A stretch of DNA of 64,000 nt from assembly GCA_021324825.1 (NCBI GenBank), contig JAJPII010000002.1:1-64000 (forward strand), in the 5' to 3' direction. The stretch is from Spartobacteria bacterium (GTDB taxonomy: Bacteria > Verrucomicrobiota > Verrucomicrobiia > Chthoniobacterales > Chthoniobacteraceae). Below the pieces are notes generated by a model. It did no database searches, was not told where the DNA came from, and saw only the letters and a list, made by a program, of their open reading frames with translations. Position 1 is the first letter of the stretch. Each line of letters opens with the position of its first letter. This document shows, piece after piece, positions 1,752 through 44,173 of the stretch. The position numbers were made by a program, and so were the translations under genes.

Positions 1752-1920
1752 TAGAGCGTTTCATGCACTTTTGCCCGCTCTTAGTTGTTCTTGGTTGTAG
1801 AGGCGGCTGTGCCAGCCGCCTAAAGAACTGGCTTGCGCTTTAGCTTTGCCTCCCGCTCCAGGCGGCTGGCACAGCCGCCTCTACAACGAAGAGCGGGCGA
1901 AAAGTGCATGATACGCTTTA
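1752..1920. repeat. Long palindromic repeat: two inverted copies of the GGCGGCTG element
   Basis: Core copy 1794-1821 and its inverted copy 1860-1887 are nearly perfect reverse complements (GTTGTAGAGGCGGCTG side against CAGCCGCCTCTACAAC side). Each core also folds on itself (GGCGGCTG, three-base loop, CAGCCGCC). The outer arms 1752-1782 and 1889-1920 match as a roughly 31-base imperfect inverted repeat (AGCGT-TCATGCACTTTT). The element looks like a MITE or double REP unit. Its right edge, CGCTTTA, overlaps the TAA stop of the minus-strand ligase gene. Further copies lie near 6.47, 8.66, 30.31 and 44.15 kb. Confidence 0.85.
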
Positions 1921-3486
1921 GGGAAGATCGCGCCATAAGGCGGGGGCTTCCGCGTCCATGGCGGCGGCGGCGCGGTCGTAGATTTCACGCGCTTCTTCGG
2001 GCGAGTTGCCGACCGCGGTCATGCCCGTGCGCCCGACTTCGCTCAATGCGGGGAGCATGTGGAAGACGACGCCGGTCTGGCCCGTCTGGCCAAAATGCAG
2101 GCCGTGACGCACGGCGAGGTCGAAGAGGTCGTCGGGCGTGAAGCCCCGGTACGCGGGTGAGGCGAGGTGGTCGGTGGCGATGAGGTATTTCCGCCGCCCG
2201 CTCGGGGCGGTGAAGATGGCGGTCTCGGGGTCGTAGACGCCTCCGGTCAGGAATTGCAGGGTCAGGAAGGGGTGGGTGGTGCCGCCTTTGCGGAGGTTGA
2301 CTTCGATGGCGTATGTCCGCCACGGTTCGTCCGGGCTGTCGCGCGTGACGACGAAATCGAGCGCGAACCGCCCGATGACTCCCGCTTCCGCCAGGAGCGC
2401 GCCGACTTTGGCCGCTTCGCGGGTGATGGCTGCCGCGTAGCCTGTGTCGGCGGGGAAGAGGCAGCCGAGGTAGCTTTGCCCGCCCGGGCCGCCGAGCATC
2501 TGGTCGTGCGTGGAGAGCAACTCGACTTTCCCCAGCGGGGTGGCGCGCAACTGCACGCTGGGGCTGCGGATTTCGTGCGCGCCGACGCCGACCCGTTCTT
2601 CCACGATGCCGCCGTGCTGGGTGAAGCGTTCCATGTATTGGTCGTAGGTCAGGTTCGCCAGTTCGAAGTGCATTCCCCGCAGGCGCTCCTCGAGCGCGGC
2701 GCGTTCCGCGGGGTCGCCGGGCGCGGGCAGTCCGTCGAGGTCGACGAGTGCGTTTCCCGAGCCGGAGACGCCTTCGTTGATCTTGACGACGGTTTGCCGC
2801 ATGTCCGGTTTTTCCGCGCGCATTCCCTCCAGGGCGTCCAGGATGTCGGTGGCGTTTGAGAGGTCTTCGCGCCCGAGCGGGTAGGAGACGCCCGCGCGTT
2901 TGAAGAGTTGGCGGCAGCCGCTTTTTGCGCCGTAAGGGAAATATTTCGGGTCGGCGCCATACATCGGGATGCCCAGGCAGAGCGCGAGATTGCGCTCGAG
3001 GAAGGTCGTGTTGTAGGCGACCAGGTGGGCGCGATCCGGGTCGCGGATGAGAGAGCGGATGCGTGCGAGCAAGGCGGGCCGCTGGAGCAGCTTGCGGCTG
3101 AGCGGCTGGGGCGAGCCGTCGCCGGGCGCGAGGAGGTGCAGCCGCTGGCGCGCGTGGCTTGGGATGACGCCCGGCAGCAGGCCGAGATAGTATTCTATGA
3201 CGCTGGGCGAAACGGCCTGGGAGGTTACGTAGATCAACTCGGCCCGCGGTTGGGCGAGCAGGAGCAGGAGGAAGAGAAAGCGTTCCTCGAACGCCTGCAG
3301 GCGCGCGCCGCCGGGCATCCTGTCGAGGGTCATCGAGGGGACGACGACGATGGTCTGGGCGTCCTGGTTGAACGATTGGATGGAATGCCACAGCGGCACG
3401 AGCTTCTTCTGAAGTTCGTCGAAGCGCGCCGCGGCTTCCTCCGCGCTCATGCCTTCCAGGCCGATGGTAGCGTGATCCGATTCCAT
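1918..3486 (-). CDS. PGM1-type ATP-grasp peptide ligase-like protein
   Basis: A 522-residue protein. The middle carries ATP-grasp features (MRQTVVKINEGVSGSGNALV, a lysine-containing ATP-binding strand, and IEVNLRKGGTTHP, the metal/ATP loop). The C-terminus (GVVFHMLPALSEVGRTGMTA) matches my memory of the PGM1 C-terminal domain, named after the pheganomycin peptide ligase. Such enzymes join a carboxylate to an amine with ATP. No peptide precursor or biosynthetic genes are adjacent, so the substrate is unknown. Start ATG 3484-3486 is chosen because upstream the frame runs antisense into the lyase gene. The TAA stop lies in the edge of a palindromic repeat. Confidence 0.75.
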   Translation of the reverse strand: MESDHATIGLEGMSAEEAAARFDELQKKLVPLWHSIQSFNQDAQTIVVVPSMTLDRMPGGARLQAFEERFLFLLLLLAQPRAELIYVTSQAVSPSVIEYYLGLLPGVIPSHARQRLHLLAPGDGSPQPLSRKLLQRPALLARIRSLIRDPDRAHLVAYNTTFLERNLALCLGIPMYGADPKYFPYGAKSGCRQLFKRAGVSYPLGREDLSNATDILDALEGMRAEKPDMRQTVVKINEGVSGSGNALVDLDGLPAPGDPAERAALEERLRGMHFELANLTYDQYMERFTQHGGIVEERVGVGAHEIRSPSVQLRATPLGKVELLSTHDQMLGGPGGQSYLGCLFPADTGYAAAITREAAKVGALLAEAGVIGRFALDFVVTRDSPDEPWRTYAIEVNLRKGGTTHPFLTLQFLTGGVYDPETAIFTAPSGRRKYLIATDHLASPAYRGFTPDDLFDLAVRHGLHFGQTGQTGVVFHMLPALSEVGRTGMTAVGNSPEEAREIYDRAAAAMDAEAPALWRDLP

Positions 3487-3537
3487 GGAATGGAAGTTTG
3501 GCTCGCGCCGGCGGTTTGCCAAGCTTGAAAACGCGCC

Positions 3538-5994
3538 TTGGTTGGGCCACCATCGGGAAAGCCATCGCGTATGCCGGCCGGCCCGCCCCCCTTTAAAATT
3601 TTGATTCCAAATTTCCGGTATCCCAGGTTTGGCAAATTTTTGTTGTTGCTTGTTCTCTTCACGGGGGGCGGATTCGGCTACGCGGAATCCGTGGAGCAAT
3701 TTACAAACCCCGCGCTTGCGCGGGCTCCGACGGTGGATGCTGGCGGTCCCTTCGTTCATCCCGGCGGTTTGCACACCAAAGAGGATCTCGACCGGATGAA
3801 GGCGAAGGTGAAGGCGCACGCCCATCCATGGATCGACGACTGGGAAGAGTTGATCAAAGATCGCATGGCGCAGGACGACTACCTCCCGACGCCGAGAGCG
3901 GATATGCCCAGCCGTCAGCGTGCCCAGGACGATGCCAGCGCGATGTATCTCAACGCGCTTCGTTGGTATATTTCCGGCGACACGAAAAACGCCGAATGCG
4001 CCGTGAGGATCGCCAATGGCTGGTCCGCGGTGGTCAATACAGGCCCGCGCGGAGATTCCTTGAGCGGGATTCCGGTGGGCAGTTTTGCGCTCGCGGGCGA
4101 AGTCCTGCGCGCCTATCCGGGCTGGGAGAAAACGGATTTCGAGAGGTTCAAAAAGATGCTGTCTGAGTATTGGTATCCGAAGTGCAGCCGTTTTCTGAAG
4201 ACTCATAACGGCGATCCTCCCAGCCAGGCGTGGGCCAACTGGGATGCGTGCAACATGGTCGCCGTGCTTGGGATCGGCGTGCTCTGCGACGATAAGGCGA
4301 AGTTCGATCAAGCGGTGGAATATTTCAAAAAAGGGGCCGGCATGGGCGCGATCGAAAACGCCGTGCCATTTCGTTATCCCGGCGGTCTCGGCCAATGGCA
4401 GGAAAGCGGGCGCGATCATGCCCACGCCATGGGCGGCATGGGATTGCTCTCAGAATTCTGCCAGGTCGCCTGGAATCAGGGCGTCGACCTCTTTGGTTAT
4501 GATGACAACCGGCTGCTGGCGGGGGCCGAATACGAGGCTCAATATAATCTCTGGAAGGGGGTTCCGTACACCTTCTACAGCAACTCGGAGCAGGCGAACC
4601 AATATTACATCTCGCCTGCCTATCGGGGCCGTCTCCAAGCGTCGCATTTCGAACTGCTCTACAACCACTATGTCGTGCGGAAAGGCCTCGACGCCCCGAA
4701 CGTCAAACTCTTCGCCGAGTTGAAGCGTCCGGAGGACAGGAACGTGGATGTCTTTGGCTACGGCACGCTCACTTACACGCTGGATGCGGCGGCTTCGCCC
4801 TACCCGGCATTCACGAAGCCGCCGGCGCCGCGGGATCTCGTAGCGAGCGCGGGAATCGACCGGGTTGAGTTGAGATGGTCGCCCTCGGGCGCTTACACCA
4901 CTCGCGGTTATGAGGTGTTGCGTTCCACCTCGGTGAGCGGCGATTTTCAGAGTGTTTTTTCCAACGAAGGCTTTACGACGCCCCTTTATACGGATCGAAA
5001 CGTCGAGAACGGCAAGACCTATTACTACGCCGTCGAGGCTATAAACCAGTTGGGGAAGAGCGAAAGGTCCGAGCCTTCCGCCGGCGCGACACCGGTGGGG
5101 GCAGGTCCGCTGCCGAAGGACTATGCCAGTGTGGACATCGGGGATTCAAAGGTCGCCAATGCCGACACTTACGCGAAGGCGGGGAACAACTCCTTCGTGG
5201 TGATGGCGGGAGGCGGAGGGGTCGGCGGCGAGGCGGACAGTTGCCATTTCGTTTACCGGACCGTCTCGGGGGATTTCACGATCACGGCGCGGTTCGCCAA
5301 CCGGAACGACGGCTGGCCGTTCAAGACCGGCGTGATGATGCGGGAAAGCACGAAGGCCGCGGCGAAGGCGCTGGCGGTGACGGTGGGCGAGATTGGCGGA
5401 CGTCAGACGCGGTTTACCTGCCGCGACTCCCAGGGGAGCCATGGCCAGCGTGGCAATGACTACACCTGGTTTCCATCATGGTTTCGTTTGCGGCGGCAGG
5501 GGGATGACTTCACCGCTTTCCAATCCTCGGACGGCATCACCTGGTTCCAGTTCGGCGAGACCAGGGCAACCCTGGCGCAGACCTGCCTGGTTGGCATGGT
5601 CGTGGCGGCTGGAGGCCCCCCGGGCAAACCTATGTCGGTCTCATTTGATAACGTGGCGATCGAAGCCGCGCCGCCGAAGCCGCCCGCGGCGCCAGACGCT
5701 TTGCAGGTGATAGCCTCCAGCAACAACACGATCGAACTGAAGTGGACCAACCCGAACAGTAACCAAACGGGCGTCAAGATCGAGGGTTCTACCGACAATA
5801 AGTTGTTTTACGAAATCGCTGACCTCGCCGCCAACGCGACCAGCTTTATTAATACCGGCGTAAATCGTTCCACCGGCCATTACTACAGGATCCGCGCCTA
5901 TAACACCGGCGGCTATTCAGCTTACTCGAACAGTGCCGGAATCGCTCCGTCTGCCGGAGCGGTTGCTTTCTTTCAGAACAGGGCGTACCGTTGA
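3538..5994 (+). CDS. Secreted alginate lyase-family protein with fibronectin III modules
   Basis: About 818 residues if ATG 3538 is used; ATG 3571 or a later TTG close to the signal peptide (FGKFLLLLVLFTGGGFGYA) is equally possible. Residues about 60-430 form an alpha/alpha-toroid lyase-type domain (LHTKEDLDRMKAKV, NWDACNMVAVLGIG, GGLGQWQESGRDHAHAMGGM). The NWD and GRDHAH stretches look like the substrate-binding and catalytic region of alginate-lyase/heparinase folds. A fibronectin III domain (about 430-520), a beta-sandwich module (about 530-715, ending VSFDNVAIEA) and a second fibronectin III domain follow. It probably cleaves an acidic polysaccharide outside the cell. The substrate cannot be read from the sequence. 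Confidence 0.8.
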   Translation: MVGPPSGKPSRMPAGPPPFKILIPNFRYPRFGKFLLLLVLFTGGGFGYAESVEQFTNPALARAPTVDAGGPFVHPGGLHTKEDLDRMKAKVKAHAHPWIDDWEELIKDRMAQDDYLPTPRADMPSRQRAQDDASAMYLNALRWYISGDTKNAECAVRIANGWSAVVNTGPRGDSLSGIPVGSFALAGEVLRAYPGWEKTDFERFKKMLSEYWYPKCSRFLKTHNGDPPSQAWANWDACNMVAVLGIGVLCDDKAKFDQAVEYFKKGAGMGAIENAVPFRYPGGLGQWQESGRDHAHAMGGMGLLSEFCQVAWNQGVDLFGYDDNRLLAGAEYEAQYNLWKGVPYTFYSNSEQANQYYISPAYRGRLQASHFELLYNHYVVRKGLDAPNVKLFAELKRPEDRNVDVFGYGTLTYTLDAAASPYPAFTKPPAPRDLVASAGIDRVELRWSPSGAYTTRGYEVLRSTSVSGDFQSVFSNEGFTTPLYTDRNVENGKTYYYAVEAINQLGKSERSEPSAGATPVGAGPLPKDYASVDIGDSKVANADTYAKAGNNSFVVMAGGGGVGGEADSCHFVYRTVSGDFTITARFANRNDGWPFKTGVMMRESTKAAAKALAVTVGEIGGRQTRFTCRDSQGSHGQRGNDYTWFPSWFRLRRQGDDFTAFQSSDGITWFQFGETRATLAQTCLVGMVVAAGGPPGKPMSVSFDNVAIEAAPPKPPAAPDALQVIASSNNTIELKWTNPNSNQTGVKIEGSTDNKLFYEIADLAANATSFINTGVNRSTGHYYRIRAYNTGGYSAYSNSAGIAPSAGAVAFFQNRAYR

Positions 5995-6026
5995 CGAGCA
6001 ATTCTGAAACCGCGAGGTGACTTTTT

Positions 6027-6446
6027 ATGAAGCTTTTGCTGCCGGTGTTTTTTGCAATGACGGGGATCGCTTTTGCGCAGAGCGGGGCTTCGCAGGGCGG
6101 CTCGGCGGATGGGACGGCGCTTGCGGAGAAGATCATCGAGACTTACAAGCAGATATTCGTGCAGGCCAAGCCGATCTTCGATGCGGCGGACGTGCAGTTG
6201 CCGAAGGAGTTGCTGGGCGCCGCGAAGGATGCGACGCCGTCGGCGGAGTCGCAGACGGAGAAGCCACGGAAAAGGGAAGGCTTGCAGACCGGCAGTTTGC
6301 AGACGGGCGGCCTGCCGCTCACTTTGCCGAATGTCGATCCCACCACGGAGCCGATCGAGCAGTACCAGATGTGGCGAAAGGCCGAGCGCGACAAGGCTTT
6401 GCGGGATCGCTACCTGGAGTTGCGCAAGATCGCCCGGGGCGATTAG
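6027..6446 (+). CDS. Small secreted protein, unknown function
   Basis: 139 residues. It has a signal peptide (MKLLLPVFFAMTGIAFAQ, cleavage after AFA), a helical stretch (LAEKIIETYKQIFVQAKPIF), a central region with duplicated TGSLQTGGL-like turns, and a charged helical C-terminus (YQMWRKAERDKALRDRYLEL). A good ribosome binding site (GAGGTG about ten bases upstream) supports the ATG. It lies 32 bases after the lyase gene on the same strand and could be cotranscribed with it. No family recognised. Confidence 0.65.
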   Translation: MKLLLPVFFAMTGIAFAQSGASQGGSADGTALAEKIIETYKQIFVQAKPIFDAADVQLPKELLGAAKDATPSAESQTEKPRKREGLQTGSLQTGGLPLTLPNVDPTTEPIEQYQMWRKAERDKALRDRYLELRKIARGD

Positions 6447-6470
6447 TCCCGCGCTTGGATGTGCCGCCCC

Positions 6471-6524
6471 AGGCGGCTGGCACCGCCGCCTCTACAACAA
6501 AGACAAAGTGCATGACACGCTTTA
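6471..6524. repeat. Single copy of the GGCGGCTG palindromic element, overlapping a stop codon
   Basis: AGGCGGCTGGCACCGCCGCC (6471-6490) matches the inverted core at 1860 with one substitution, which weakens the hairpin by one pair. It runs on through CTCTACAAC. The outer arm (AAAGTGCATGACACGCTTTA) ends at 6524. Its last bases, TTA on the plus strand, are the TAA stop of the HAD gene, as at 1918-1920. Confidence 0.8.
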
Positions 6525-7196
6525 AGCGAAGAGGGCGTCGATCCGGCTGATTTCCAGTTCGTCCAGCCGGTGGACGGCGAGTTCGGCTTTGCCCAGTTCT
6601 TCTATCGGGTTCGTCGTGGCGACGGCTACGGCTTTCATGCCTCCGCGGTGCGCGGCTTCGATGCCGACGTGGGCGTCTTCGAAGACGACGCAGCATTCCG
6701 GCAGTCTGCCGATCCGCCGGGCGGCGAGGAGGAAGATTTCAGGGTCGGGTTTGCCGTGGTTCACGTCGTCGCCGCAGACGATGTCGGCGAAGCTTGCGGA
6801 GAGGCCGAGACCATCCAGGACGACGTCGATGTTGATGCGGCTGGTGGAGGAGCCGATGACGCAGGGGATGCCCGCTTTGTTCAACGTTCGCAGCCACGTT
6901 TCGACGCCGGGCAGGGCGTGGATGCCGCGCTCTTTCAGGATCTCGCGGTAGAGCGCTTCCTTGCGGAGGGCGAGGCGCTTTATTTCCTCGATGTCTTTGC
7001 TCCAGGAAAGGATCTCGGGGATGATGTAGTGGTTCTTCCGCCCGAATCCCATTTTGAAATGGCCGGGTGGCAATTCCTTGCCGGTCTCCCGCGCGAGCCG
7101 CTCCCAGCTTTCCTCGTGGGCGGCGGAGGAATCGATCACCACGCCGTCCCAATCAAAGATGGCGCCCCAGCCGGCGTTCCCCGGCGTCGCGCTCAT
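6522..7196 (-). CDS. HAD-family hydrolase, beta-phosphoglucomutase-like
   Basis: 224 residues with the full HAD signature. Motif I is FDWDGVVIDS (nucleophile Asp15 and Asp17), motif II is VIGSSTS, a lysine follows in GKPDPEIF, and motif IV is VVFEDAHVGIEAA. The helical cap between residues 20 and 90 and the GMKAVAVATT stretch place it in the phosphatase/phosphoglucomutase subclass. It is probably a sugar-phosphate phosphatase or mutase, with substrate undetermined. The start overlaps the stop of the upstream Deg-like gene by ATGA (7193-7196), so the two are probably translationally coupled. The stop codon comes from the palindromic element. Confidence 0.85.
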   Translation of the reverse strand: MSATPGNAGWGAIFDWDGVVIDSSAAHEESWERLARETGKELPPGHFKMGFGRKNHYIIPEILSWSKDIEEIKRLALRKEALYREILKERGIHALPGVETWLRTLNKAGIPCVIGSSTSRINIDVVLDGLGLSASFADIVCGDDVNHGKPDPEIFLLAARRIGRLPECCVVFEDAHVGIEAAHRGGMKAVAVATTNPIEELGKAELAVHRLDELEISRIDALFA

Positions 7197-8677
7197 AAGC
7201 GGTTAAGGGCGGGGAGGCCGTAGCTTTTCATCAAGGCGTCGTTGCCGGCCGAGACCTGGCCGGCGTCGAGGTAAAGGACTTTCGGGTCTTGCTCGAATTC
7301 GATTTTGTGAAAACCGTTGAGCGGTTTCTCCACGGCCTTCGCGACGTCGGCGATGCTCTTGATGCTGACGCCGTTTATCTTCGAGACGATGAGGTAGGAG
7401 AGCATCTCGTAGCCGACCGTGGTGGCGGAAGGGAGCACCTGGCTGAGGATCACGAGTTTCCTGTCGTGAGCAGGGAAGAGTTCGTTCTGGTAACGGTCGT
7501 AATACACGAAACGTTCGGGGGCTTTTTTCATCCATTCGGCGCCCCATTCCTTGAGGTACTGGCGGGAGAGTTCTTGCATGACGAGCCCGCCCAGGACGAA
7601 GTATTGCGGGGCGCGGTCCAATGTGTAGGGGGCGATGACGTAGTCGTCCACGCTGCGATGGGCGAGGGTCATATCGAGTTCCGTTTCCTTGCCGCCGCGA
7701 AAGACTTTCAGCTTCAACGCGTCGCCGTCGTAGCTCGCGGTGGAGATGATGTGGATGATCGAGATTTTCCCGTATTGCGGGTCTTCGTAGTCGCCGTCCT
7801 GGTCGACCGCCTTCCCACCGATCTCCAGGATGACGTCGCCGACTTTCAGGCCGCCTTTGCCGGCCGGGCCGTCTTTCTGCACCTCGGTGACATAGACGCC
7901 CCGGGTTTCCGATTCCGCCAGCCCGGCGTAACGGCGCAACTGCGGGTCGCGCATCGGCGCGAAGAGGAGGCCCGCGCGGGGGAAGCCGAGATACTTCGCG
8001 CCGTTGGCGGCGTCCTTCAGGAAATGCTCGATGACGGCGGCGGGGATGGCGTCGAGGCTCTGGGTGCGCGAGTCGTAGCGCATCATGAGGCCGGCGAGCT
8101 TCCCGTCCTTGATGACGGGGATGGTGAAGCTGCCGTCACGGTACTGGAGGGAGGCGGTGAGGCGGTACGTGAGGTACGCGCCGTCGATCGGGTAGTGCGA
8201 GACTTCCGCGGTGGTAAGGAGCGCGCTGGTGATGAGGAGCGCGCCGGTGCTCTCGAGCTGCCATACGGAAAGCCGGTCGCCGACCGCGGCGGGTTGCAGG
8301 TCGAGCGGCTTCACGCCGTCGAGAAATTTGTCGTTTGCGGGCTTCAACAGGGCGAGGTTGGCTTCGTAGTCGACGACTTCGACGTCGGCGGCGATCTTCT
8401 CGCCGCTCCCGGCTTTCTCCAACTCGACATAGTCGGAGTTGGCCACCAGTTCCCCGGTTACGAGGACGCGCCCGTCCGCCAGGACGGCGCCGAGGCCGCG
8501 CAGCGAGTAGGGGGCTCTCTTGCTCCAGGGATGGAAGAAATCGTAACCCTGGTTCGTGGCGTTGACGCGGACCACCGACGCCTGATGATCCTTCGCCACC
8601 TCCAAGGGAGCGCCGAAGGCCGCGAGCGCGGGAGCGAGCAGCAGGACGAAAACGGGAAGAAACCTAGAGCGTGTCAT
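7193..8677 (-). CDS. Deg-like protease paralogue without a catalytic triad (probable pseudoenzyme)
   Basis: 494 residues from ATG 8675-8677, with signal peptide (FLPVFVLLLAPALAAFG). It aligns along its length with the neighbouring intact protease. The histidine position reads VLVTGELV (Glu76), the aspartate reads DYEANLALL (Asn107), and the GNSGG loop is replaced by YRDGSF near residue 183. The PDZ-like domain (GVYVTEVQKDGPAGKGGLKVGDVIL) and the C-terminal second domain are kept. It may bind peptides, serve as a partner subunit of the active protease, or be inert. The start codon lies inside the arm of a palindromic repeat, so the native start may have been replaced. Confidence 0.8.
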   Translation of the reverse strand: MTRSRFLPVFVLLLAPALAAFGAPLEVAKDHQASVVRVNATNQGYDFFHPWSKRAPYSLRGLGAVLADGRVLVTGELVANSDYVELEKAGSGEKIAADVEVVDYEANLALLKPANDKFLDGVKPLDLQPAAVGDRLSVWQLESTGALLITSALLTTAEVSHYPIDGAYLTYRLTASLQYRDGSFTIPVIKDGKLAGLMMRYDSRTQSLDAIPAAVIEHFLKDAANGAKYLGFPRAGLLFAPMRDPQLRRYAGLAESETRGVYVTEVQKDGPAGKGGLKVGDVILEIGGKAVDQDGDYEDPQYGKISIIHIISTASYDGDALKLKVFRGGKETELDMTLAHRSVDDYVIAPYTLDRAPQYFVLGGLVMQELSRQYLKEWGAEWMKKAPERFVYYDRYQNELFPAHDRKLVILSQVLPSATTVGYEMLSYLIVSKINGVSIKSIADVAKAVEKPLNGFHKIEFEQDPKVLYLDAGQVSAGNDALMKSYGLPALNRL

Positions 8678-8751
8678 GCGCTTTTCGCCCGCAGTCCCCG
8701 AGGCGGCGTCGTTGTCGTCGTGGAGGCGGCTGACACAGCCGCCTCTACAAC
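8664..8751. repeat. Palindromic element copy covering the start of the inactive Deg-like gene
   Basis: Left arm TAGAGCGTGTCATGCGCTTT begins at 8664. The core GAGGCGGCTGACACAGCCGC and the following CTCTACAAC run to 8751 (stem GGCGGCTG, loop ACA, CAGCCGCC). The CAT in the left arm is the reverse complement of the ATG start of the minus-strand gene. The element sits between two tandem Deg-like paralogues. Confidence 0.8.
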
Positions 8752-8768
8752 CAACTGAAACTTTACAT

Positions 8769-10226
<1,458 letters not shown>

Positions 10227-30313: not shown

Positions 30314-30340
30314 TGGTAGAGGCGGCTGTGCCAGCCGCCT
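30314..30340. repeat. Palindromic element core between ureC and ureE
   Basis: TGGTAGAGGCGGCTGTGCCA and the following GCCGCCT form the same GGCGGCTG-TGC-CAGCCGCC hairpin seen at 1794 and 44146. It is followed by TGGAGCGGAAGG, a flank shared with the 44146 copy (TGGAACGGGAG). The long outer arm is absent. As RNA the hairpin would lie between the two urease gene blocks and could affect differential expression or mRNA decay. Confidence 0.8.
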
Positions 30341-30428: not shown

Positions 30429-32177
<1,749 letters not shown>

Positions 32178-32849: not shown

Positions 32850-32864
32850 CCCGGCCTCGCACGC

Positions 32865-35281: not shown

Positions 35282-36844
35282 GTGAGCGTCTCCGAACTAA
35301 AGCCGCCCCAGATACGGGCTTTGCTGCTGTTGCTCGTCCTGCTCCCGTTCATCCCGACTGTGCTCATGCTGCGCCTCATGGTCGGCGCCGTGCAGACGGA
35401 ACACGAGATAGCCCAGGAAAGAATCGCCGATCTCTACCAGCGTTCGCTGGCCACCGTCGGCTCCTACCTGCCGAACCGCCTCAAGGCCGCCTCCTCGCTC
35501 GACCCGGGCGAGACGCCCCGGGAGCAATTCGAACAGCTCATCCTCGAGCACTCCATGGACGGCGCCTTGTTCTTCGACGAAAAAAGGCGGCTCGTCTTTC
35601 CAACGTCCGCGCCGAAACCGGGCGAAGAGCCCGTCCCGCCCAAGGTGTCGCAGGCCGAGGACTTCTCGCGCTCGATGGCCGCCCGGAGTCCCGACAAACT
35701 TGCCCACGCCTCCCTTCTTTCGTGGACGCCGCTCCCGGGCGCGCCGGACGGTCTTTATGTCATCCGAACCCGCATCCAGGGGGAAAACGTCGTCTTTCTC
35801 CGGCGGGGCAAGACCCTTTCCTCCCTGGTGCAGGCGTTCTATTCGCAGACGTTCGACCCCATCGTCTCCATCCGGATCCAGAATGAACGCGGCGAGTTCT
35901 TCCCGCGCATCCCAGCCCGGGGGGACGGCCCGTTCGTCCAGACAGCCATCGGCGATTGCCTTCCCGGCTGGCAGGTGCAGCTCTTCCTCAACAAATCGAA
36001 GGTCCTGGTGGAGGGCGGCGCGCAGGATCAACTCAAGGCCTACATTTGGATAGCCGCCGTCGCCATCGCGGGAGACCTTTTCATAGCCGGGGTAGCGGCG
36101 TTCGCGGTCAGCAGGCAGTTGAGATTGAATGAACTGCGGAACAGCTCGCTCGCCACGGTGTCGCATGAATTGAAGACCCCCATCGCCTCCGTGCGCATGT
36201 TGATAGACACCATACTCGAAGGCCGTTGCGAACGTCCCGGGCAGGCGCGCGAATACATCGAACTCATCTCCGGCGAGAACCACCGGCTCGGGCGCGTGGT
36301 CGAGAACTTCCTGGCCGCTTCCCGCATCGAGAGCGGCTCCTACTCCTTCAACAAGGTCGAGACGCCGCCCTCGGAAATCGTCGACGCCACACTGGAAGTC
36401 ATGGGCGCCCGCCTGAAAGCCGAGGGCTGCCGGCTCGATCTGAATGTGGACCCCGATCTCCCGCCCGTCCGCGTCGAGCGCGACGCGCTGGTCGTCGTCC
36501 TGGTCAACCTGCTCGAAAACGCCCTTAAATATTCGCCCGGGGAGAAGCGGATAAGCCTCGACGCCTATTCGAAAAACGGCGCCATCGTCTTCGAAGTGGG
36601 CGACAACGGCGCCGGCATCCCGTGGAAACACCGCAAGAAAATCTTCGAGCGCTTCTACCAGATCGACCAGAAACTTTCCCGCCGCCAGGAAGGAACTGGA
36701 CTTGGCTTGAGCATCGTCAAGTATATCGTGGAAGCGCATGGCGGCTCCGTCGCGGTCCGGAGCGGGCGCGAGGAAGGGAGCGTCTTCAGCATCAGCCTCC
36801 CTTCCGTGGCCGCGGCAACTGCCCTGACATGGAAACAGTCCTGA
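35282..36844 (+). CDS. Membrane sensor histidine kinase
   Basis: 520 residues from a GTG start. Membrane segments at about 12-34 and 254-275 flank a 220-residue extracytoplasmic sensor. A HisKA domain follows directly, with no HAMP linker visible (His295 in TVSHELKTPIASVR). The ATPase domain has N-box VLVNLLENALKYSP, G1 VGDNGAGIP, F-box FERFYQIDQ and G2 GTGLGLSIVKYIVEAHGG. It overlaps the response regulator by 16 bases, so the two are a pair. The stimulus is unknown. A TonB receptor gene follows the pair. Confidence 0.95.
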   Translation: MSVSELKPPQIRALLLLLVLLPFIPTVLMLRLMVGAVQTEHEIAQERIADLYQRSLATVGSYLPNRLKAASSLDPGETPREQFEQLILEHSMDGALFFDEKRRLVFPTSAPKPGEEPVPPKVSQAEDFSRSMAARSPDKLAHASLLSWTPLPGAPDGLYVIRTRIQGENVVFLRRGKTLSSLVQAFYSQTFDPIVSIRIQNERGEFFPRIPARGDGPFVQTAIGDCLPGWQVQLFLNKSKVLVEGGAQDQLKAYIWIAAVAIAGDLFIAGVAAFAVSRQLRLNELRNSSLATVSHELKTPIASVRMLIDTILEGRCERPGQAREYIELISGENHRLGRVVENFLAASRIESGSYSFNKVETPPSEIVDATLEVMGARLKAEGCRLDLNVDPDLPPVRVERDALVVVLVNLLENALKYSPGEKRISLDAYSKNGAIVFEVGDNGAGIPWKHRKKIFERFYQIDQKLSRRQEGTGLGLSIVKYIVEAHGGSVAVRSGREEGSVFSISLPSVAAATALTWKQS

Positions 36845-37515
36845 TCATCGAGGATGACGCCGCCATGATGCGGGGCCTGAAGGACAATTTCCAGTTCCAA
36901 GGCTACCGGGTAAAAACCGCGATCGACGGCGAACAAGGGCTTCAGGAAGCCCTGAAAGGCTCGCCCGACCTCATCATCCTCGACATCATGCTGCCCAAGG
37001 TAAACGGCTACGAAATCTGCCGTTACCTGCGCGAGGAAAAGAAAGAGATGCCGATCATCATGCTCACCGCGAAGGGGAACGAGGCCGACATCGTCCTGGG
37101 CCTCAAACTGGGCGCCGATGACTACGTCACCAAGCCCTTCAGCATAAAGGAACTGCTCGCCCGCAGCGAAGCCTTCCTCCGCCGCCGCCGCGAGAAGGAG
37201 TCGCCCCTCCACGCCTTTGGCGATTGCCTCCTTAACCTCACGGCCCGCAGGCTCACCCGCGCCGGGGAAGAGGTGAAACTCTCGCCGAAGGAATTCGAGC
37301 TCCTGAGCTTCCTCCTGAAGAAAACCGGGCACGCCGTCAGCCGGGACGAGATACTCAATACCGTGTGGGGTTACGATTGCCTCGTCACCCCCCGGAGCAT
37401 CGACCGTTTTGTGAACGCCCTGAGGCAAAAAATCGAACCCGACCCGCAGCGGCCCGTCTATATCCAGACCGTGCGGGAGTTCGGCTACAAATTTATCGTC
37501 GAGCAACCGGCTTGA
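36829..37515 (+). CDS. OmpR-family response regulator
   Basis: 228 residues. Receiver domain with METVLIIEDDAAM, phosphoacceptor Asp52 in LIILDIMLPKVNG, LTAKGNEAD and Lys in YVTKPFS. A winged-helix DNA-binding domain follows (about 130-225; VKLSPKEFELLSFLLK, SRDEILNTVWGYD, VNALRQKIEPDPQRPVYIQT). Cognate partner of the overlapping histidine kinase. The TonB-dependent receptor gene begins 36 bases downstream and may be cotranscribed. Confidence 0.95.
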   Translation: METVLIIEDDAAMMRGLKDNFQFQGYRVKTAIDGEQGLQEALKGSPDLIILDIMLPKVNGYEICRYLREEKKEMPIIMLTAKGNEADIVLGLKLGADDYVTKPFSIKELLARSEAFLRRRREKESPLHAFGDCLLNLTARRLTRAGEEVKLSPKEFELLSFLLKKTGHAVSRDEILNTVWGYDCLVTPRSIDRFVNALRQKIEPDPQRPVYIQTVREFGYKFIVEQPA

Positions 37516-37551
37516 CCTCTTCGGGCAAGATCGCTACAAACCAACGCAGAA

Positions 37552-39615
37552 ATGAACGCCGCACCTTCCCCAGGCTGCCGGAATATATTCCTGCGGGCGG
37601 CTTTTTATCTGGCGTTGACGGCCTGCGCGCTCGCTGAAAACGACCCCGGCGCGACGGAGCAAACCCAGGCGTCCGCGCCGGGAGTTTCGGGCCTAAGCCT
37701 CGAGCAGTTGATGGATGTGCAGGTGACAACCGTCGCCCGCGAGGAGAGCACCGTCGGCGAATCGCCCGCGGCGGTCTTCGTCATCACGCAGGAGATGATT
37801 CACCGCTCCGGCGCGACCACCATCGCCGAACTGCTGAGGATGGTTCCGGGCATGGACGTCGCCCGCGTCAACGGGCATACGTGGGACATCAGCGCCCGGG
37901 GTTTTAATAATTCCATCGCGGGCAAAATGCTTGTGCAGATCGACGGGCGGACCCTCTACACCCCCGTCTATTCCATCGTTTACTGGGATACCGTGGACTA
38001 CCCGCTCGAAGACATCGAGCGCATCGAAGTCATCCGCGGGCCCGGCGGGAGCGTCTGGGGGGCCAACGCCGTCAACGGCATCATCAACATCATCACCAAA
38101 TCCGCCAAGGACACCCAGGGCGGGCTTGCCAGCGTCGGCGGCGGAACCTCCCCGCAGAGTTTCGGCGAATTCCGTTTCGGCGGAAAATTGAGCGATAACC
38201 TTTACTACCGCGCCTACGGCAAATGGTCCGACTTCCCGGATGAGTTCAACGCCCTCGCCAGTTCGCACGACCGGTGGTACGAAGGGCGCCTCGGCATGCG
38301 CATCGACTGGACGCCGAACACCGAGGATTCCTTTACGCTGCAAGGCGATTGGTTCGACAGCGTCGCCGACCAGGAGACCTTCGTCGCGCAACCCGCGCCG
38401 CCGTTTTCTATGCCGTATTTCCACCCGGAAATCACGGACGGCGCAAACGTGCTCGGGCGCTGGAAACGCTCGCTCGGCAAGGATTCAAATCTTGAGGTCC
38501 AGGCGTATTGGGATCGTTTCGACCAGGACCTTGGCCGCGAAGCCCGCTTCGTCATCAACACGTACGATCTCGACTTTCACCACGAATTCCCGCTCGGCTC
38601 CAGGCAGAAGATCGTTTACGGCGCCGGCTATCGCCTGACCGAATTCAGCTTCCGGTCGAGCATCGGGGATAATGGATTCGCCCTGAACGGCAGTCCCGAC
38701 AGCCGGAACAGCCAGCTCTTCAGCGCCTTCATTCAGGATCAGATCACGATCATCCCCGAACGGTTTTCGCTGACGGTCGGCTCCAAGTTCGAACACAACG
38801 ACTTCACCGGGTTCGAAGCGCAGCCCACGGGCCGGATTCTCTGGACGCCCACCAAACGGCAGACGGTATGGTTCTCGGTCTCGCGGGCCGTGCGGACGCC
38901 GGGTTTCATCGAGGATAGCGTCCAGATCACCACCCCGCCCGCGTCACCCGCGGCGCCCGTCTTCCCTCAACTCGTCGGCAACACCGGGCTGGCGTCGGAG
39001 AAAGTCGTGGCGTACGAACTCGGGTATCGCGCCGCGGTCACGGACAAACTCTCCCTGGACATCGCCTCGTTTTACAATGTTTACGACGACCTGACCGTCT
39101 TCGTGCCGGGCAAGATTTCCACCCTCCAGGGGCTGCCCGTACTGCCTCTCTACCCCGCCAACCGGATGACAGGGGACACCTACGGAGTCGAGGTTTCGAC
39201 GACCTGGCAGGCGGAGCCCTGGTGGCAGCTTTACGGAAGCTACAGCTACCTGAAGATGGAAATGACCGGCCAGACCGGCGGCCTCGGCGCCGTCGGCAGA
39301 AGCCTTGTGACGGAGCAGGTCGTCGCGACGGAGAACGGAAGTCCGCAGAACATGGTGTACATCCGCTCCTCGTGGGACCTTCCTGCCCACTTCCAATTCG
39401 ACCTCATCGGCCGGTATGTCGATTGGCTCCTGCTGACCCCGAACGTGCCGGGCTACATCACCCTCGACGCGCGCCTGGCCTGGAAACCATGCAAGAATAT
39501 CGAGCTATCCGTGGTCGGCCAGAATCTGTTGGACAACCATCATCCGGAAGTCAGCGCGGCGTCCCCGGTCGAGATCGAACGGAGCGTCTTCGCCAAGGCC
39601 GCCTACTTCTGGTAG
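37552..39615 (+). CDS. TonB-dependent outer membrane receptor
   Basis: 687 residues. Signal sequence (NIFLRAAFYLALTACALAE), then a start of the plug typical of one receptor class: LEQLMDVQVTTVAREESTVG. The plug reads AAVFVITQEMIHRSGATTIA through IEVIRGPGGSVWGANAVNGI, and a beta-barrel ends in aromatic YFW. It imports a ligand (siderophore, vitamin or glycan) using TonB energy, and the ligand is not readable. No cobalamin riboswitch or Fur-box-like site was seen in the 36 bases upstream. Confidence 0.93.
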   Translation: MNAAPSPGCRNIFLRAAFYLALTACALAENDPGATEQTQASAPGVSGLSLEQLMDVQVTTVAREESTVGESPAAVFVITQEMIHRSGATTIAELLRMVPGMDVARVNGHTWDISARGFNNSIAGKMLVQIDGRTLYTPVYSIVYWDTVDYPLEDIERIEVIRGPGGSVWGANAVNGIINIITKSAKDTQGGLASVGGGTSPQSFGEFRFGGKLSDNLYYRAYGKWSDFPDEFNALASSHDRWYEGRLGMRIDWTPNTEDSFTLQGDWFDSVADQETFVAQPAPPFSMPYFHPEITDGANVLGRWKRSLGKDSNLEVQAYWDRFDQDLGREARFVINTYDLDFHHEFPLGSRQKIVYGAGYRLTEFSFRSSIGDNGFALNGSPDSRNSQLFSAFIQDQITIIPERFSLTVGSKFEHNDFTGFEAQPTGRILWTPTKRQTVWFSVSRAVRTPGFIEDSVQITTPPASPAAPVFPQLVGNTGLASEKVVAYELGYRAAVTDKLSLDIASFYNVYDDLTVFVPGKISTLQGLPVLPLYPANRMTGDTYGVEVSTTWQAEPWWQLYGSYSYLKMEMTGQTGGLGAVGRSLVTEQVVATENGSPQNMVYIRSSWDLPAHFQFDLIGRYVDWLLLTPNVPGYITLDARLAWKPCKNIELSVVGQNLLDNHHPEVSAASPVEIERSVFAKAAYFW

Positions 39616-39617
39616 CC

Positions 39618-40043
39618 TTACTTCTTCGGCGAAGGCGAGGGCGCAGGGGAAGCGCCGCCTTTGACCGGCTTCGGGCCGAATCGCACGGAGAGGGCCGTCA
39701 GCTTGCCGGTCGCGTCCTTCGTCACCTTTCCACCGCAATCATCGCCCACCACCGCGTCCTTGAGCGTCGCCACGGCGCCGTTCTTCATGATCTTCGTGGT
39801 CGCGGTGACATTGAAGACGCGGGGCGTCTTGCCTTCCAGGGTGAAGGTGCTCGCCTTCACATCCACGGCGCTCACCTTGCCGTGAAAGGGATAAGTGCTT
39901 TCCTTCGCCACGGATGCGGAGGCGGAAGGGGCGGCGGATGGAGCCGCGCTGGGTTGGGCTTTTGCCTTCGCGTGAAGCGTGGCGGGCGTCAAGGCGAGGC
40001 AGAGGAGAGCCGCAATGGCGGCGGGGATCGCTATTCTTTTCAC
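39618..40043 (-). CDS. Small secreted protein with a DUF5666-like beta domain
   Basis: 141 residues. Signal peptide (AIPAAIAALLCLALTPATLHA), low-complexity linker of Pro-Ser-Ala repeats (PSAAPSAAPSASAS), then a beta-barrel-like domain (FHGKVSAVDVKASTFTLEG, ATTKIMKNGAVATLKDAVVG). This resembles small OB-like DUF5666 domains. Lysine-rich ends. The stop lies two bases from the convergent TonB receptor stop. Function unknown. Confidence 0.65.
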   Translation of the reverse strand: MKRIAIPAAIAALLCLALTPATLHAKAKAQPSAAPSAAPSASASVAKESTYPFHGKVSAVDVKASTFTLEGKTPRVFNVTATTKIMKNGAVATLKDAVVGDDCGGKVTKDATGKLTALSVRFGPKPVKGGASPAPSPSPKK

Positions 40044-40155
40044 GTAGGGGATCTCTTTCTAGGCTGGGGGTTTTGGAAAAGCGCGCGCGGGCGTCGCGAC
40101 GGCTTAACCCCTCCTTTGTAACGGAGGCCGCGACCCGTGTCCATCCTCTTTTTTA

Positions 40156-40599
40156 TCAGTCGAGATCGAGCGAACCAAGCAGGCCGTTGTTTATCCTGCC
40201 GGTAACCGCCAAGCCGTTATCCCGCTGGTAATCGCGGATCGCCTGCCGGGCCATCGGGCCAATAACCCCGTCAATGTCCCCGTGGTAATACCCCTTTTTC
40301 GCCAGGGCTTGTTCGACAGCCGCCTCCAGGGATTCATGGGAATCGTCCACCACGCGGCCCTGGTAGGTTCCGTAGTAAGGCGGCGGGTAATCATAAGGAT
40401 ACGGGTAACCATAAGGCCCCCAATACCCCGGGTAGAACCCCACGCCAAACAAAACTCCGCCATGGTAATAACCCCTGCCGTAATATGCTCCGTGCCCCCA
40501 ATAACGGCCATGCCCGTGATCGTGATCGTGGGCTGAAGCGGCTCCGGTCAATGCGAGGGCGGCGCCCAGACTCAACGCGAACTTGAATAGAGATTTCAT
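40156..40599 (-). CDS. Secreted peptidoglycan-binding domain protein with His/Gly/Tyr-rich region
   Basis: 147 residues from ATG 40597-40599. Signal peptide (FKFALSLGAALALTGAASA), a histidine cluster HDHDHGHGRYWGHG, a Gly/Tyr/Pro-rich stretch (about 35-85) and a C-terminal PG_binding_1 domain (LAKKGYYHGDIDGVIGPMAR, then AIRDYQRDNGLAVTG). The histidine cluster could bind metal. It probably attaches to the cell wall. A longer antisense frame overlapping the STAND gene is a shadow. Confidence 0.85.
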   Translation of the reverse strand: MKSLFKFALSLGAALALTGAASAHDHDHGHGRYWGHGAYYGRGYYHGGVLFGVGFYPGYWGPYGYPYPYDYPPPYYGTYQGRVVDDSHESLEAAVEQALAKKGYYHGDIDGVIGPMARQAIRDYQRDNGLAVTGRINNGLLGSLDLD

Positions 40600-40743
40600 A
40601 AAATTGGTTTCCCGGTGAAAATACGCCTCCCCCGGCGATCTTTCAACCATCCAGGTTATTGGAAACGCCGGAATCGCCTGAATATGCCGCTCGCGTCGGC
40701 ATTGCACCGTGCGGGGCGCTTCTGATACGCTTGCATTCCCCCT

Positions 40744-43700
40744 GTGAAAACGCTGCGGATTTTCATCTCCTCGACCGGGGATGTCGTGACCGAACGCCTG
40801 CGGGCTTATGACGTCGTCGCCCGCTTGCAGGCGAAGTTCCGCGCCAATGTAAAACTCGAACCGATTCGCTGGGAACACGACGCCGTCGCGGCGGAGCGCG
40901 TGCCGCACCCGCATCCTTCGAAGGCGGATGTCGTGGTCTGGATTCTCTGGGGCCGCGTGGGGATGCGCCTGCCGGGGGATTGTAAAAACCCCGAACCCTC
41001 CGGCACGGAATGGGAGTTCGCCGACGCCGGGGCGGTCCAGCAAAGCGGGGAGGCCCCGGAGCTTCTCGTGTATCGCAAGAAGGCGCTGCCGGAGGGGCTG
41101 GACGAGGAGGAACTCGCGGAATGGAACCGCGGGAAGGAACCCCTGGATCAACTGCTGGAGAAGTGGTTCGAAGGGGGGGAGAGCGCGATCTCGATATTCG
41201 GGACGGACGAGGAATTCGAGGCGATGCTCTCGCGCCAGCTCGAAAAAATCATACTCGAACAACCCGGGTTCGACGGCCCGCCCGATGTCGCGTGGGCGGA
41301 AGGGTCGCCCTTTCGCGGCCTCGCGGCCTTCCACGCCGAGCACGCGCCCGTCTTTTTCGGACGCAGCCTTGAGACCGGCGAAGCGCTCTCCCGGCTCCTC
41401 GCGCAGGCGGCGGAGGGCGGCGGCGTTTTCCTCATGATCTTTGGCAGGAGCGGTTGCGGGAAGTCCTCCCTGGCGCGCGCGGGCGTGCTGGCGGAATTGA
41501 TGCGCCCCGATTCGACGCTCTTCAACGCGCCGGTCTGCTGGCGGTGCGTCATCATGCAGCCGGATGAATGCCCCGCGGGCCTCGTGGAAGGTCTCGTCGC
41601 GGGGTTGTTCGCCCGCCTGCCGGAAATCGAATCGCCCGGTTTCAATCCCGGCAAGCTGGCCGCGCTGCTGCGCGCCGCGCCTGCGCACGCCATCCCCGTG
41701 TTGCAGGCCGCGCTGGAGAAAGTCGCGCGCGCCGAGGCGGCGGCGGGGACCGCGCGGCTTGTTCTGTTCATCGACCAGTTCGAGGAGATATTTGCTTCGG
41801 ACCGCTTCAACCCCGCCGAACGCACCGCCTTTGTCTCGGCTCTCTCGGCGCTTAGCCGCGCCGGGCTCGTGTGGGTGCTCGCCACCATGCGGAACGATCT
41901 CTACGCCCGCTGCGCCGAGGTTCCCGAACTTATTTCCCTGAAAAGCAGGGACGGCCACTACGATCTCGCCCCGCCCAACGCCTCCGAGATGGGCCAGATG
42001 GTGCGCGGCCCGGCCAAAGCGGCGGGCCTCCGGTTCGAGATGCACCCCACCAGCGGCAAGATGCTCGACGACGCCCTTCTTGAAGAGGGATGCAAGCGCC
42101 CGGAAGCCCTGCCGTTGCTGGAGTTCCTGCTGGAGGAACTCCATGCGGGCAAGACCGCGGACGGCGTGCTGACGTGGGAAGCGTATGGGAACATCGGCGG
42201 ACTGGATTACGCCATCGCCCGCCGCGGCGAGGTGACCCACGACGCGCTGCCGCTGTCCGCCAGGGAATTGATGCGGCCCATCCTCGAAGAACTCGTTTCC
42301 GTCTCGGAGAACGGCATGGATGTCCGCCGCCCCGCGCGCTTGCTCGACCTGCCCACGGGTTCGGAGCCGGTGGTGGAAGCCTTCACGCGGGCGGGACTCT
42401 TCGTCACAAGCGCCGATGCCGCGAATGAGCAGGTCGTCTCCCTGGCGCACGACGAACTGCTGACGCAATGGCCGCGGTTGAAGGATTTGCTGGATCAAAA
42501 CCGCGAGTTCCTGCGGGTAAAGGCCCGCATAGCGGAAGCCGCGGCCCGCTGGCGCGATTCGAAGCGCGCTCCCGGCTTGTTGTTGGGGCCGGGGCCGCGG
42601 CTGGCCGAGGCGGCCGCGGCGTTGCGGGAACGCCGGGCCGACCTCAACCCCAGGGAAGCCGAGTTCGTCCAGATGTCGCTCGGCGCCGCCTCGGAACCCG
42701 GGAAGCGGCCGTCCGGCGTCAATTGGGTGCGCGTGGCCCTGGGAAGCATAGTCTGCGCGGCGCTCTGCGGCTACATCGCCTACCGGGAGATCGTCTCCGC
42801 GAACGCCGCCCGGCGGGATGCCGAATCCGCCCGGCAGATGACGAGCGACGCGACCGGCAACGCCCGCTTCGCCTCGGAACGGGAGCAGCAGATTCGCCAG
42901 GAGACGGACAAGCTCATCGATTTCATGGTCGTTGACTTGCCCGCGAAGCTCCAGCCCCTGGGGCAGGTCGGCTTGCTTGACGCCGTGCTCGGGAAAGTCC
43001 GCGAGTACCGCGAGAGGATCCCCGCGCCGCTGCCCGCCGGGGCGACCCTTCGGAGGCAATTCGCGTTATTGAGCGGCGAAGGCGGCATCCTCATCTCGCG
43101 CGGCAAACTGTCGCAGGCGCTGGGCGACTTTCAGCAATGCCTGACCCTCGCAAACAAAATGGCCGCCGAAAATCCCGGCGGCGCGGAATCACAAAACGCG
43201 CTCTTCACTTCCCAGGAGAAGATCGGCGAAATCCTGAGATCGCAGGGCAACCTGGCCGACGCCTCCGACGCATATCGGCAGGCGCTCGCCATAGCCAAAA
43301 AAGCCGCCGCCGCCAATCCGCGATCCCTCACATGGCAGGCGGCCCTGGCGGAAAGCTTGAACGACACGGGCGACCTCCTCAGTTCGCAAGGCAGCCTGGA
43401 CGAAGCGCTGACAACCTGCCGGCAGGCGCTGGACGTGGCGGACAAGCTGGCAAAGCGCGATCCCGCCAAAGCCGCGTGGCAGCGCGCTCTTTCCGTCATC
43501 CACGGCAACCTAGCCGACATCCTGAACTCCCAGGGGACCCTGGACGACGCCCTCAAGGAAGCCGGGCAGAGCCTCGCCATCGCGAAAACCCTGGCGGACC
43601 GCGACCCCGGCAACACGGCCTTGCAGCGCGACCTCTCCGTCAGCTACGAAAAGAACGGCGACGTGCTCGCCTCGCGTCGGAAGGCGGAAGACGCGTTGAA

Positions 43701-44115
43701 GGCCTATCAGCAAAGCCTCGCCATCCGGCAGAAACTTGTCGGCGCGGACCCGGCCAACGTCGTCTGGCAGCACGACCTCTCCACAAGCCAGGAAAAAATC
43801 GGCGATGTCCTGAGTTCGCAGGACAAGCAGGAGGAAGCGTTTAAGCGGTACCAGGAGAGCCTGGCCGCCCGCGAGAAACTGGCCGCGCTGGACGCCGGCA
43901 ACGCCGCCTGGCGGAGCGACTTTGCGCTCATGCAATTCAAAACGGGCAGCGCCATGGCGCACACCAAAGACGCCGCCCGCCTCGCGCAAGCGCGCGCTCT
44001 CATCGGCAAAGCCTATCAATCCCTCGTAAACCTGAACGAGAAATCCCTCCTCACAAACAAAGAGCAAGGCTGGATAAAAGTGGTGGAAGCCGAGATGGCG
44101 AAGCTTGGCAAGTGA
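40744..44115 (+). CDS. DUF4062 / nSTAND NTPase / TPR repeat protein, candidate conflict-system sensor
   Basis: 1123 residues from a GTG start. Residues 1-100 match DUF4062 (LRIFISSTGDVVTERLRA), a domain found at the N-terminus of STAND proteins. About 186-560 is an nSTAND1-type NTPase introduced by SPFRGLAAFHAEHAPVFFGR, with Walker A GRSGCGKSSLA (Lys240), Walker B LVLFIDQFEEIF (Asp344) and a winged-helix region (SLAHDELLTQWPRL). One membrane segment lies at about 664-680. From about 785 six TPR-like units of roughly 50 residues run to the end (IGDVLSSQDKQEEAFKRYQE). STAND proteins sense a trigger through C-terminal repeats and activate an N-terminal effector. It is a lone gene with a palindromic element 31 bases after its stop. 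Confidence 0.88.
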   Translation: MKTLRIFISSTGDVVTERLRAYDVVARLQAKFRANVKLEPIRWEHDAVAAERVPHPHPSKADVVVWILWGRVGMRLPGDCKNPEPSGTEWEFADAGAVQQSGEAPELLVYRKKALPEGLDEEELAEWNRGKEPLDQLLEKWFEGGESAISIFGTDEEFEAMLSRQLEKIILEQPGFDGPPDVAWAEGSPFRGLAAFHAEHAPVFFGRSLETGEALSRLLAQAAEGGGVFLMIFGRSGCGKSSLARAGVLAELMRPDSTLFNAPVCWRCVIMQPDECPAGLVEGLVAGLFARLPEIESPGFNPGKLAALLRAAPAHAIPVLQAALEKVARAEAAAGTARLVLFIDQFEEIFASDRFNPAERTAFVSALSALSRAGLVWVLATMRNDLYARCAEVPELISLKSRDGHYDLAPPNASEMGQMVRGPAKAAGLRFEMHPTSGKMLDDALLEEGCKRPEALPLLEFLLEELHAGKTADGVLTWEAYGNIGGLDYAIARRGEVTHDALPLSARELMRPILEELVSVSENGMDVRRPARLLDLPTGSEPVVEAFTRAGLFVTSADAANEQVVSLAHDELLTQWPRLKDLLDQNREFLRVKARIAEAAARWRDSKRAPGLLLGPGPRLAEAAAALRERRADLNPREAEFVQMSLGAASEPGKRPSGVNWVRVALGSIVCAALCGYIAYREIVSANAARRDAESARQMTSDATGNARFASEREQQIRQETDKLIDFMVVDLPAKLQPLGQVGLLDAVLGKVREYRERIPAPLPAGATLRRQFALLSGEGGILISRGKLSQALGDFQQCLTLANKMAAENPGGAESQNALFTSQEKIGEILRSQGNLADASDAYRQALAIAKKAAAANPRSLTWQAALAESLNDTGDLLSSQGSLDEALTTCRQALDVADKLAKRDPAKAAWQRALSVIHGNLADILNSQGTLDDALKEAGQSLAIAKTLADRDPGNTALQRDLSVSYEKNGDVLASRRKAEDALKAYQQSLAIRQKLVGADPANVVWQHDLSTSQEKIGDVLSSQDKQEEAFKRYQESLAAREKLAALDAGNAAWRSDFALMQFKTGSAMAHTKDAARLAQARALIGKAYQSLVNLNEKSLLTNKEQGWIKVVEAEMAKLGK

Positions 44116-44145
44116 TTACCGTTGGTTTTTGAGCGGCGTCGTTTT

Positions 44146-44173
44146 GTTGTAGAGGCGGCTGTGCCAGCCGCCT
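44146..44173. repeat. Palindromic element core downstream of the STAND gene
   Basis: GTTGTAGAGGCGGCTGTGCC and the following AGCCGCCT are identical to the 1794 copy and form the GGCGGCTG-TGC-CAGCCGCC hairpin. The flank TGGAACGGGAGAG resembles that at 30314. It lies between the stops of convergent genes. Confidence 0.85.

What the first reader, a model, noticed from the sequence alone, without database searches (positions are those of the whole stretch)
1752..44173. Interspersed palindromic element at five loci whose outer arm supplies stop and start codons
The core GGCGGCTG-NNN-CAGCCGCC with flanking GTTGTAGA occurs at 1794 and 1860 (inverted pair), 6471, 8722, 30314 and 44146. Three loci also carry an outer arm (AGCGT-TCATGC-CTTTT). 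The arm's terminal TAA is exactly the stop codon of two unrelated minus-strand genes (1918-1920 and 6522-6524). At 8675-8677 the arm's CAT gives the ATG of another gene. This suggests a mobile palindrome that prefers or tolerates gene edges and has remodelled gene ends, like REP/RAYT or MITE families. No transposase is present in the window.
Basis: partly seen in the sequence, partly recalled or inferred. Interest (0 to 1): 0.75.

Follow-up and report, generated by a model that had tools for sequence, protein, structure and literature searches.

The report
Jumping palindrome that punctuates genes
A short jumping DNA element, made of one kind of mobile repeat carried inside another, has spread through this bacterium's genome by landing in the stop codons of genes, where its ends put the stop codon back and can supply a new start codon for the next gene.

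Summary
The repeat is real and common: about 198 core motifs and 110 outer arms in the 3.3-Mb genome, with controls of 0-1. It is a composite. The outer arm, TA-GAGCGTGTCATGCACTTT, is the terminal inverted repeat of a MITE with a TA target duplication. In relatives the same arm bounds an insertion sequence with an IS4/IS5-type (DUF4096) transposase. The core is a GTAG-tagged REP. Its cognate RAYT lies elsewhere in the genome, flanked by the same REPs. REPINs of other sequence sit inside MITEs with this terminus in several other genomes.

The stop-codon observation holds genome-wide: 36 of 93 elements have an edge that is exactly the stop codon of a gene, against 19% of comparable YTAR sites. 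These genes are full length, so stops are restored, not remodelled. Seven genes start at an ATG inside the terminus (MTRS...), including kdsB and a cobA-hemD fusion. In four elements one edge stops the upstream gene and the other starts the downstream gene.

Embedded REP dimers and start-donating MITEs each have a published precedent. The dual punctuation and recurrent REPIN capture appear new. No autonomous partner was found in this genome.

The parts
1752..1920 (.). Complete composite element, 165 bp (1754-1918) with TA target duplications at 1752-1753 and 1919-1920
1754..1772 (+). Left terminal inverted repeat (outer arm) of the MITE
1797..1821 (+). REP1: GTAG-tagged palindrome GTAGAGGCGGCTG-TGC-CAGCCGCC
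   Evidence: same REP flanks the RAYT
1860..1884 (-). REP2, inverted copy; with REP1 it forms a REPIN (positions 1750-1899 fold at -93 kcal/mol, z -10.9)
1900..1918 (-). Right terminal inverted repeat of the MITE
1918..1920 (-). TAA stop codon of the ATP-grasp-like gene 1918-3486, formed by the duplicated TA plus the first base of the element
6472..6495 (-). REP of a one-ended element
6504..6522 (-). Terminal inverted repeat
6522..6524 (-). TAA stop codon of the HAD hydrolase gene 6522-7196; 11 of 12 orthologues without the element end within 0-5 residues of the same place
8665..8685 (+). Terminal inverted repeat with its TA
8675..8677 (-). ATG start codon of gene 7193-8677 (PDZ-domain protein, signal-peptide-like N-terminus MTRSRFLPVFVLLLAPALAAF), supplied by the terminus
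8725..8748 (-). REP of the same element
30316..30339 (+). REP with flanking MITE interior, arms not recognisable
44149..44172 (+). REP plus MITE interior of the single-REP subfamily, arms not recognisable

Best explanation
The repeat is a MITE of roughly 150-175 bp when complete. Its ~20-bp ends are the termini of an insertion sequence with an IS4/IS5-type (DUF4096) transposase, and it inserts at TA with TA duplication. Its interior carries one or two REP palindromes (a REPIN) of a RAYT system that also resides in the genome. The copies were most likely spread as units by the DDE transposase acting in trans on the ends, with the REPs riding along. Because TA is duplicated and the end begins with G or A, insertion into the TA of a TAA or TAG stop codon re-creates a stop and leaves the gene full length. 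Because the end read outward is ATG ACA CGC TCT A.., a gene whose native start is cut off can restart in frame with MTRS. Insertions into junctions of overlapping genes can therefore keep both genes open. Shown: anatomy, TA duplication, stop coincidence, full-length genes, in-frame ATGs, RAYT-REP locus, an insertion sequence with these ends in a relative. Inferred: trans-mobilisation by that transposase, actual translation from the terminus ATG, and REP gain or loss by RAYT.
For: Arms lie outermost and converge where elements are complete, with cores inside. Nine pairs have TA intact at both edges; they agree over four bases in only 2, and the outer base is C or T in 104 of 116 arms. G096:C17:2-892 is an insertion sequence with the arm at both ends and a decayed transposase matching PF13340 at 4.5e-19. 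The RAYT at C44:29225-29677 matches NCBIfam NF047646 at 86.1 bits (cut-off 80) and is flanked on both sides by the same REP pair. 36 of 93 elements have a stop-codon edge against 99 of 530 non-coding YTAR sites (Fisher p 5.6e-5). In other genomes 24 of 61 arm edges close an ORF of at least 100 codons against 134 of 901 YTAR sites (p 7.4e-6). Genes at edges are full length: aspartate kinase profile 1-405/407, PhoU 211/212, YifB 499/499, XerD 289/290. KdsB similarity begins at residue 5 of MTRSK..., and in the cobA-hemD fusion and the flavoprotein at residues 5-9. Empty-site joins show overlapping genes with a native start 3-9 codons upstream in three of four dual elements. 80 of 115 REP clusters have an arm within 110 bp against 1 of 115 control flanks.
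Against: No DUF4096 transposase in this genome; the only DDE_Tnp_1 match has no such ends. The partner may be extinct or lost in assembly of this incomplete, 47-contig genome. The stop-edge count relies on a home-made gene finder. The stop excess may reflect selection as well as target choice. The fourth dual element (L065) has no recognisable native start in the empty site. The regions studied were chosen around motif hits, so the REP-arm association may be biased upward. No Shine-Dalgarno-like sequence is evident before the terminus ATG.
Confidence: 0.83

Rival explanations
1. It is purely a REP/RAYT family: RAYT moves the whole unit and the outer arms are just extended REP flanks.
For: A RAYT with matching REPs exists in the genome, and REPs without recognisable arms occur.
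Against: REPs next to the RAYT lack the arms. Arms occur without REPs (52-bp element in L065), in Lysobacter and Comamonadaceae elements with no GTAG hairpin, and at the ends of a DDE-type insertion sequence. TA duplication is typical of DDE elements, not of Y1 transposition (own knowledge).
Confidence: 0.07
2. Insertions fell at random in gene 3' ends and truncated the genes, the arm providing a premature stop.
For: The arm edge contains TAG/TAA.
Against: Genes are full length by profile ends and, for the HAD gene, by orthologues. Random insertion would leave genes reading into the element in the other two frames, and almost none do.
Confidence: 0.03
3. The composite is as described, but the REPINs were not inserted by RAYT: the MITEs took them up as ordinary intergenic DNA when they formed, and selection on transcript 3' ends (hairpins as terminators or stabilisers) keeps them downstream of genes.
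For: Strong hairpin in the interior of the 1752-1920 element, location at gene ends, and no RAYT activity being shown.
Against: Several different REP families occur inside elements with the same ends, and REP-filled and REP-empty versions of the same interior coexist, which points to gain or loss of the REP as a unit. Direction is not resolved. This rival concerns one step and does not exclude the main explanation.
Confidence: 0.3

Closest known systems
GTAG-tagged REPs, REPINs and RAYTs (PMC3733652; PMC3116915)
   Same: Core has the GTAG tag, an imperfect palindrome and inverted pairs, and a RAYT gene is flanked by the same REPs. REP termini supplying TAG stops are reported in PMC3733652.
   Different: Here most REPs studied sit inside a DDE-type MITE, and the stop codon comes from the MITE edge, not from the REP.
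REP dimers inside long palindromes in A. variabilis (GTAG-15 in TATAGGA...TCCTATA, PMC3733652)
   Same: REP dimer embedded in a TA-ended palindrome; closest published precedent for the composite.
   Different: There the palindrome was not assigned to a transposon and was not found without REPs. Here the ends are traced to an insertion sequence, several REP families share them, and REP-free versions exist.
MITEAba12 (PMC6382973)
   Same: Terminus read outward supplies the first four residues (MQQS) of neighbouring genes.
   Different: Unrelated sequence; a few cases, and no dual stop/start role was found in the passages read.
Enterobacterial RU elements (PMC2759123)
   Same: TA-ended, TA-duplicating MITE-like repeats at gene ends.
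   Different: They extend or fuse with proteins; here stops are restored at the native end.

Membership tests
Bacterial MITE of an IS4/IS5-type insertion sequence | Short, non-coding, terminal inverted repeats | tested here: met
   Convergent ~20-bp termini, elements of about 50-220 bp
Bacterial MITE of an IS4/IS5-type insertion sequence | Target-site duplication | tested here: met
   TA at both edges in 9 of 23 pairs; the other pairs have a decayed edge, mostly CTGG or CCAG
Bacterial MITE of an IS4/IS5-type insertion sequence | Termini shared with an autonomous element | tested here: met
   G096:C17:2-892 carries both ends and a decayed DUF4096 transposase; similar gene starts follow the terminus in L164 and L211
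Bacterial MITE of an IS4/IS5-type insertion sequence | Autonomous partner in the same genome (usual, not required) | tested here: not met
   No PF13340 match; only DDE_Tnp_1 match lacks the ends; genome incomplete
GTAG REP / REPIN | GTAG tag plus imperfect palindrome, often in inverted pairs | tested here: met
   148 copies in the 685 kb scanned, 30 clusters in +- arrangement
GTAG REP / REPIN | Cognate RAYT flanked by the same REPs | tested here: met
GTAG REP / REPIN | Mobilisation by RAYT | not testable with these tools
   Needs experiment

The most novel reading that the evidence does not exclude
The terminus works as two-way translational punctuation: inward reading closes the upstream gene (TA+R) and outward reading opens the next one (ATG ACA CGC TCT). 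This makes insertion at overlapping gene junctions nearly neutral and explains high copy number in a compact genome, while REPINs repeatedly colonise such MITEs and gain a second mode of spread.
Probability: 0.3. Interest if true: 0.72.

Novelty: new variant of a known kind. Interest (0 to 1): 0.55.

Why it matters
It shows how a transposon can tolerate life in a gene-dense genome: target choice plus terminus sequence together keep both neighbouring reading frames intact, even when genes overlap. It also offers a natural case of two unrelated transposition systems (a DDE-type MITE and RAYT-linked REPINs) combined in one element, seen with several REP families in several genomes, which makes REPIN gain and loss open to direct tests.

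Tried and rejected
A transposase of the DUF4096 type was sought in the home genome and not found; the one DDE_Tnp_1 gene has no such ends. A four-base YTAR duplication was considered and rejected in favour of TA: only 2 of 9 intact pairs match over four bases. Orthologues of the 1918 gene were sought in 39 other genomes of the family and none found, so that gene end could only be judged by its complete C-terminal domain. Rfam shows no family over the elements. RAYT loci in other composite-bearing genomes were scanned for GTAG hairpins: several carry REPs (L262, L266, L267, L272), many do not. The strict GTAG-hairpin test misses some visible REPINs (L202, L208), so 9 of 25 is a lower bound. Two profile searches failed on wrong coordinates and were repeated.

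Full report
Observation. In the home genome (3.3 Mb, 47 contigs, 94.6% complete, the only member of its genus among the genomes searched) there are 198 core motifs and 110 arms, with reversed-pattern controls of 1 and 0. A scan of 147 genomes (home plus 146 relatives) for a 15-base core stretch found it in 13 relatives, at 1-4 copies each, so the high copy number is particular to this genome.

Anatomy. I read about 667 kb of this genome: the window plus stretches around the hits, and later an 18-kb stretch around the RAYT. Where an element is complete, the arms lie outermost and point towards each other, with the cores inside. The consensus is Y-TA-GAGCGTGTCATGCACTTT ... AAAGTGCATGACACGCTC-TA-R. 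Among 23 paired elements, 9 have TA intact at both edges; four-base flanks agree in only 2 of these, so the duplication is TA. The window element at 1752-1920 is one complete copy with two inverted cores. Edges that are not stop codons have often decayed (CTGG, CCAG): TA is kept at 36 of 37 stop edges but at 33 of 79 others; the first figure is largely so by definition.

Two nested systems. The core is GTAG plus an imperfect palindrome, the hallmark of GTAG REPs (PMC3733652). The genome has one Y1 transposase, at C44:29225-29677, which passes the NCBIfam cut-off for REP-associated tyrosine transposase and is flanked on both sides by the same REP pair, without arms. The arm is a different thing. 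The same terminus is found in Chthoniobacterales, Lysobacter, Comamonadaceae and a few other records, often as MITE-like elements with unrelated interiors. In G096 it bounds an 890-bp insertion sequence whose broken gene matches DUF4096; the beginnings of similar genes follow the terminus at contig ends in L164 and L211. The home genome itself has no such transposase, so the mobiliser is inferred.

Recurrent REPIN capture. In G459 the terminus encloses three different GTAG repeat pairs, in G458 one of those, and in G463 and an Acidobacteria record others. By a strict test 9 of 25 foreign elements outside Proteobacteria carry a GTAG hairpin against 54 of 2000 control segments; 0 of 5 from Proteobacteria do. 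Some of these REPs, or close variants of them, flank RAYT genes (L266 in G460, L262 in G459). In the home genome the inner REP1 is present in some copies and absent in others at the same site, GTTG|CCTAAAGACC; a script count gave 19 and 19, but at least two of the 'absent' copies hold a degenerate REP. In G459 a 99-bp element resembles the 180-bp one without its REPIN. Gain and loss cannot be told apart here.

Stop codons. With a simple codon-usage gene finder, 37 of 116 arm edges coincide exactly with the stop codon of a gene (36 of 93 elements), against 99 of 530 non-coding YTAR sites in the same DNA (odds ratio 2.7, p 5.6e-5). In 61 arms from other genomes, 24 edges close an ORF of at least 100 codons against 134 of 901 YTAR sites (p 7.4e-6). 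The genes are not truncated: aspartate kinase, GspF, PhoU, YifB, XerD, an aspartate-semialdehyde-dehydrogenase-like protein and a HemN-like protein reach the ends of their profiles. The HAD gene at 6522 has 12 good orthologues in the family without the element, 11 of which end within 0-5 residues of the same position. The mechanism follows from the sequence: TA duplication plus a terminal G or A turns an interrupted TAA/TAG into a stop again.

Start codons. Read outward, the terminus gives ATG ACA CGC TCT A... In seven cases a gene begins there (MTRS, MARS, MKRS, MTHS, MIRF, MTRA), including kdsB, a cobA-hemD fusion, a geranylgeranyl-reductase-like flavoprotein and a glycosyltransferase family 2 protein; in these four, conserved domains begin at residues 5-9, and three of the seven genes have no other start codon within 50 codons. 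Four elements stop the upstream gene with one edge and start the downstream gene with the other. Joining the flanks at the TA shows, in three of the four, overlapping genes: the native start (ATG or TTG) lies 3-9 codons before the TA, inside the end of the upstream gene, and is now cut off from its gene. In the fourth no native start is visible. The window case at 8675-8677 uses the terminus ATG but has only one recognisable arm.

Comparison and verdict. Published work reports GTAG REPs giving TAG stops, REP dimers embedded in TA-ended palindromes in A. variabilis (PMC3733652), and a MITE terminus supplying MQQS to neighbours (PMC6382973). I found no report in the library searched of one element that restores a stop on one side and supplies a start on the other, nor of a shared DDE-type terminus around several REPIN families; the library lacks most subscription journals. 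I therefore call it a new variant of known kinds. What remains inferred is the mobiliser, the use of the start codons in the cell, and how the REPs enter or leave. That the genome belongs to or near Chthoniobacterales (Verrucomicrobiota) is a guess from the relatives' genome sizes and was not tested.

Noticed in passing
window 31700-32013 (+): Rfam 5_ureB_sRNA hit (77.8 bits) lies antisense to the gene at 30429-32177 (582 aa, probably the large urease subunit). Probably reflects conserved coding sequence rather than an sRNA.
   Followed up: no
L143 7029-7087: A minimal element of about 60 bp in Allofranklinella schreckenbergeri: two termini almost back to back, just upstream of an open reading frame.
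   Followed up: no
L168 1300-1364 and 1886-1985: REP pairs flanking the RAYT combine two variants (GGCGCTTG and GGCGGCTG stems), one on each side of a T-rich spacer.
   Followed up: partly
L149 5054 and L162 5267: The same terminus with the same flank sits at the same place upstream of the same gene in two Comamonadaceae-type genomes, a possible shared old insertion.
   Followed up: no
window about 50290-63811: Long run of plus-strand genes that looks like the ribosomal-protein operon, with no element inside it.
   Followed up: no
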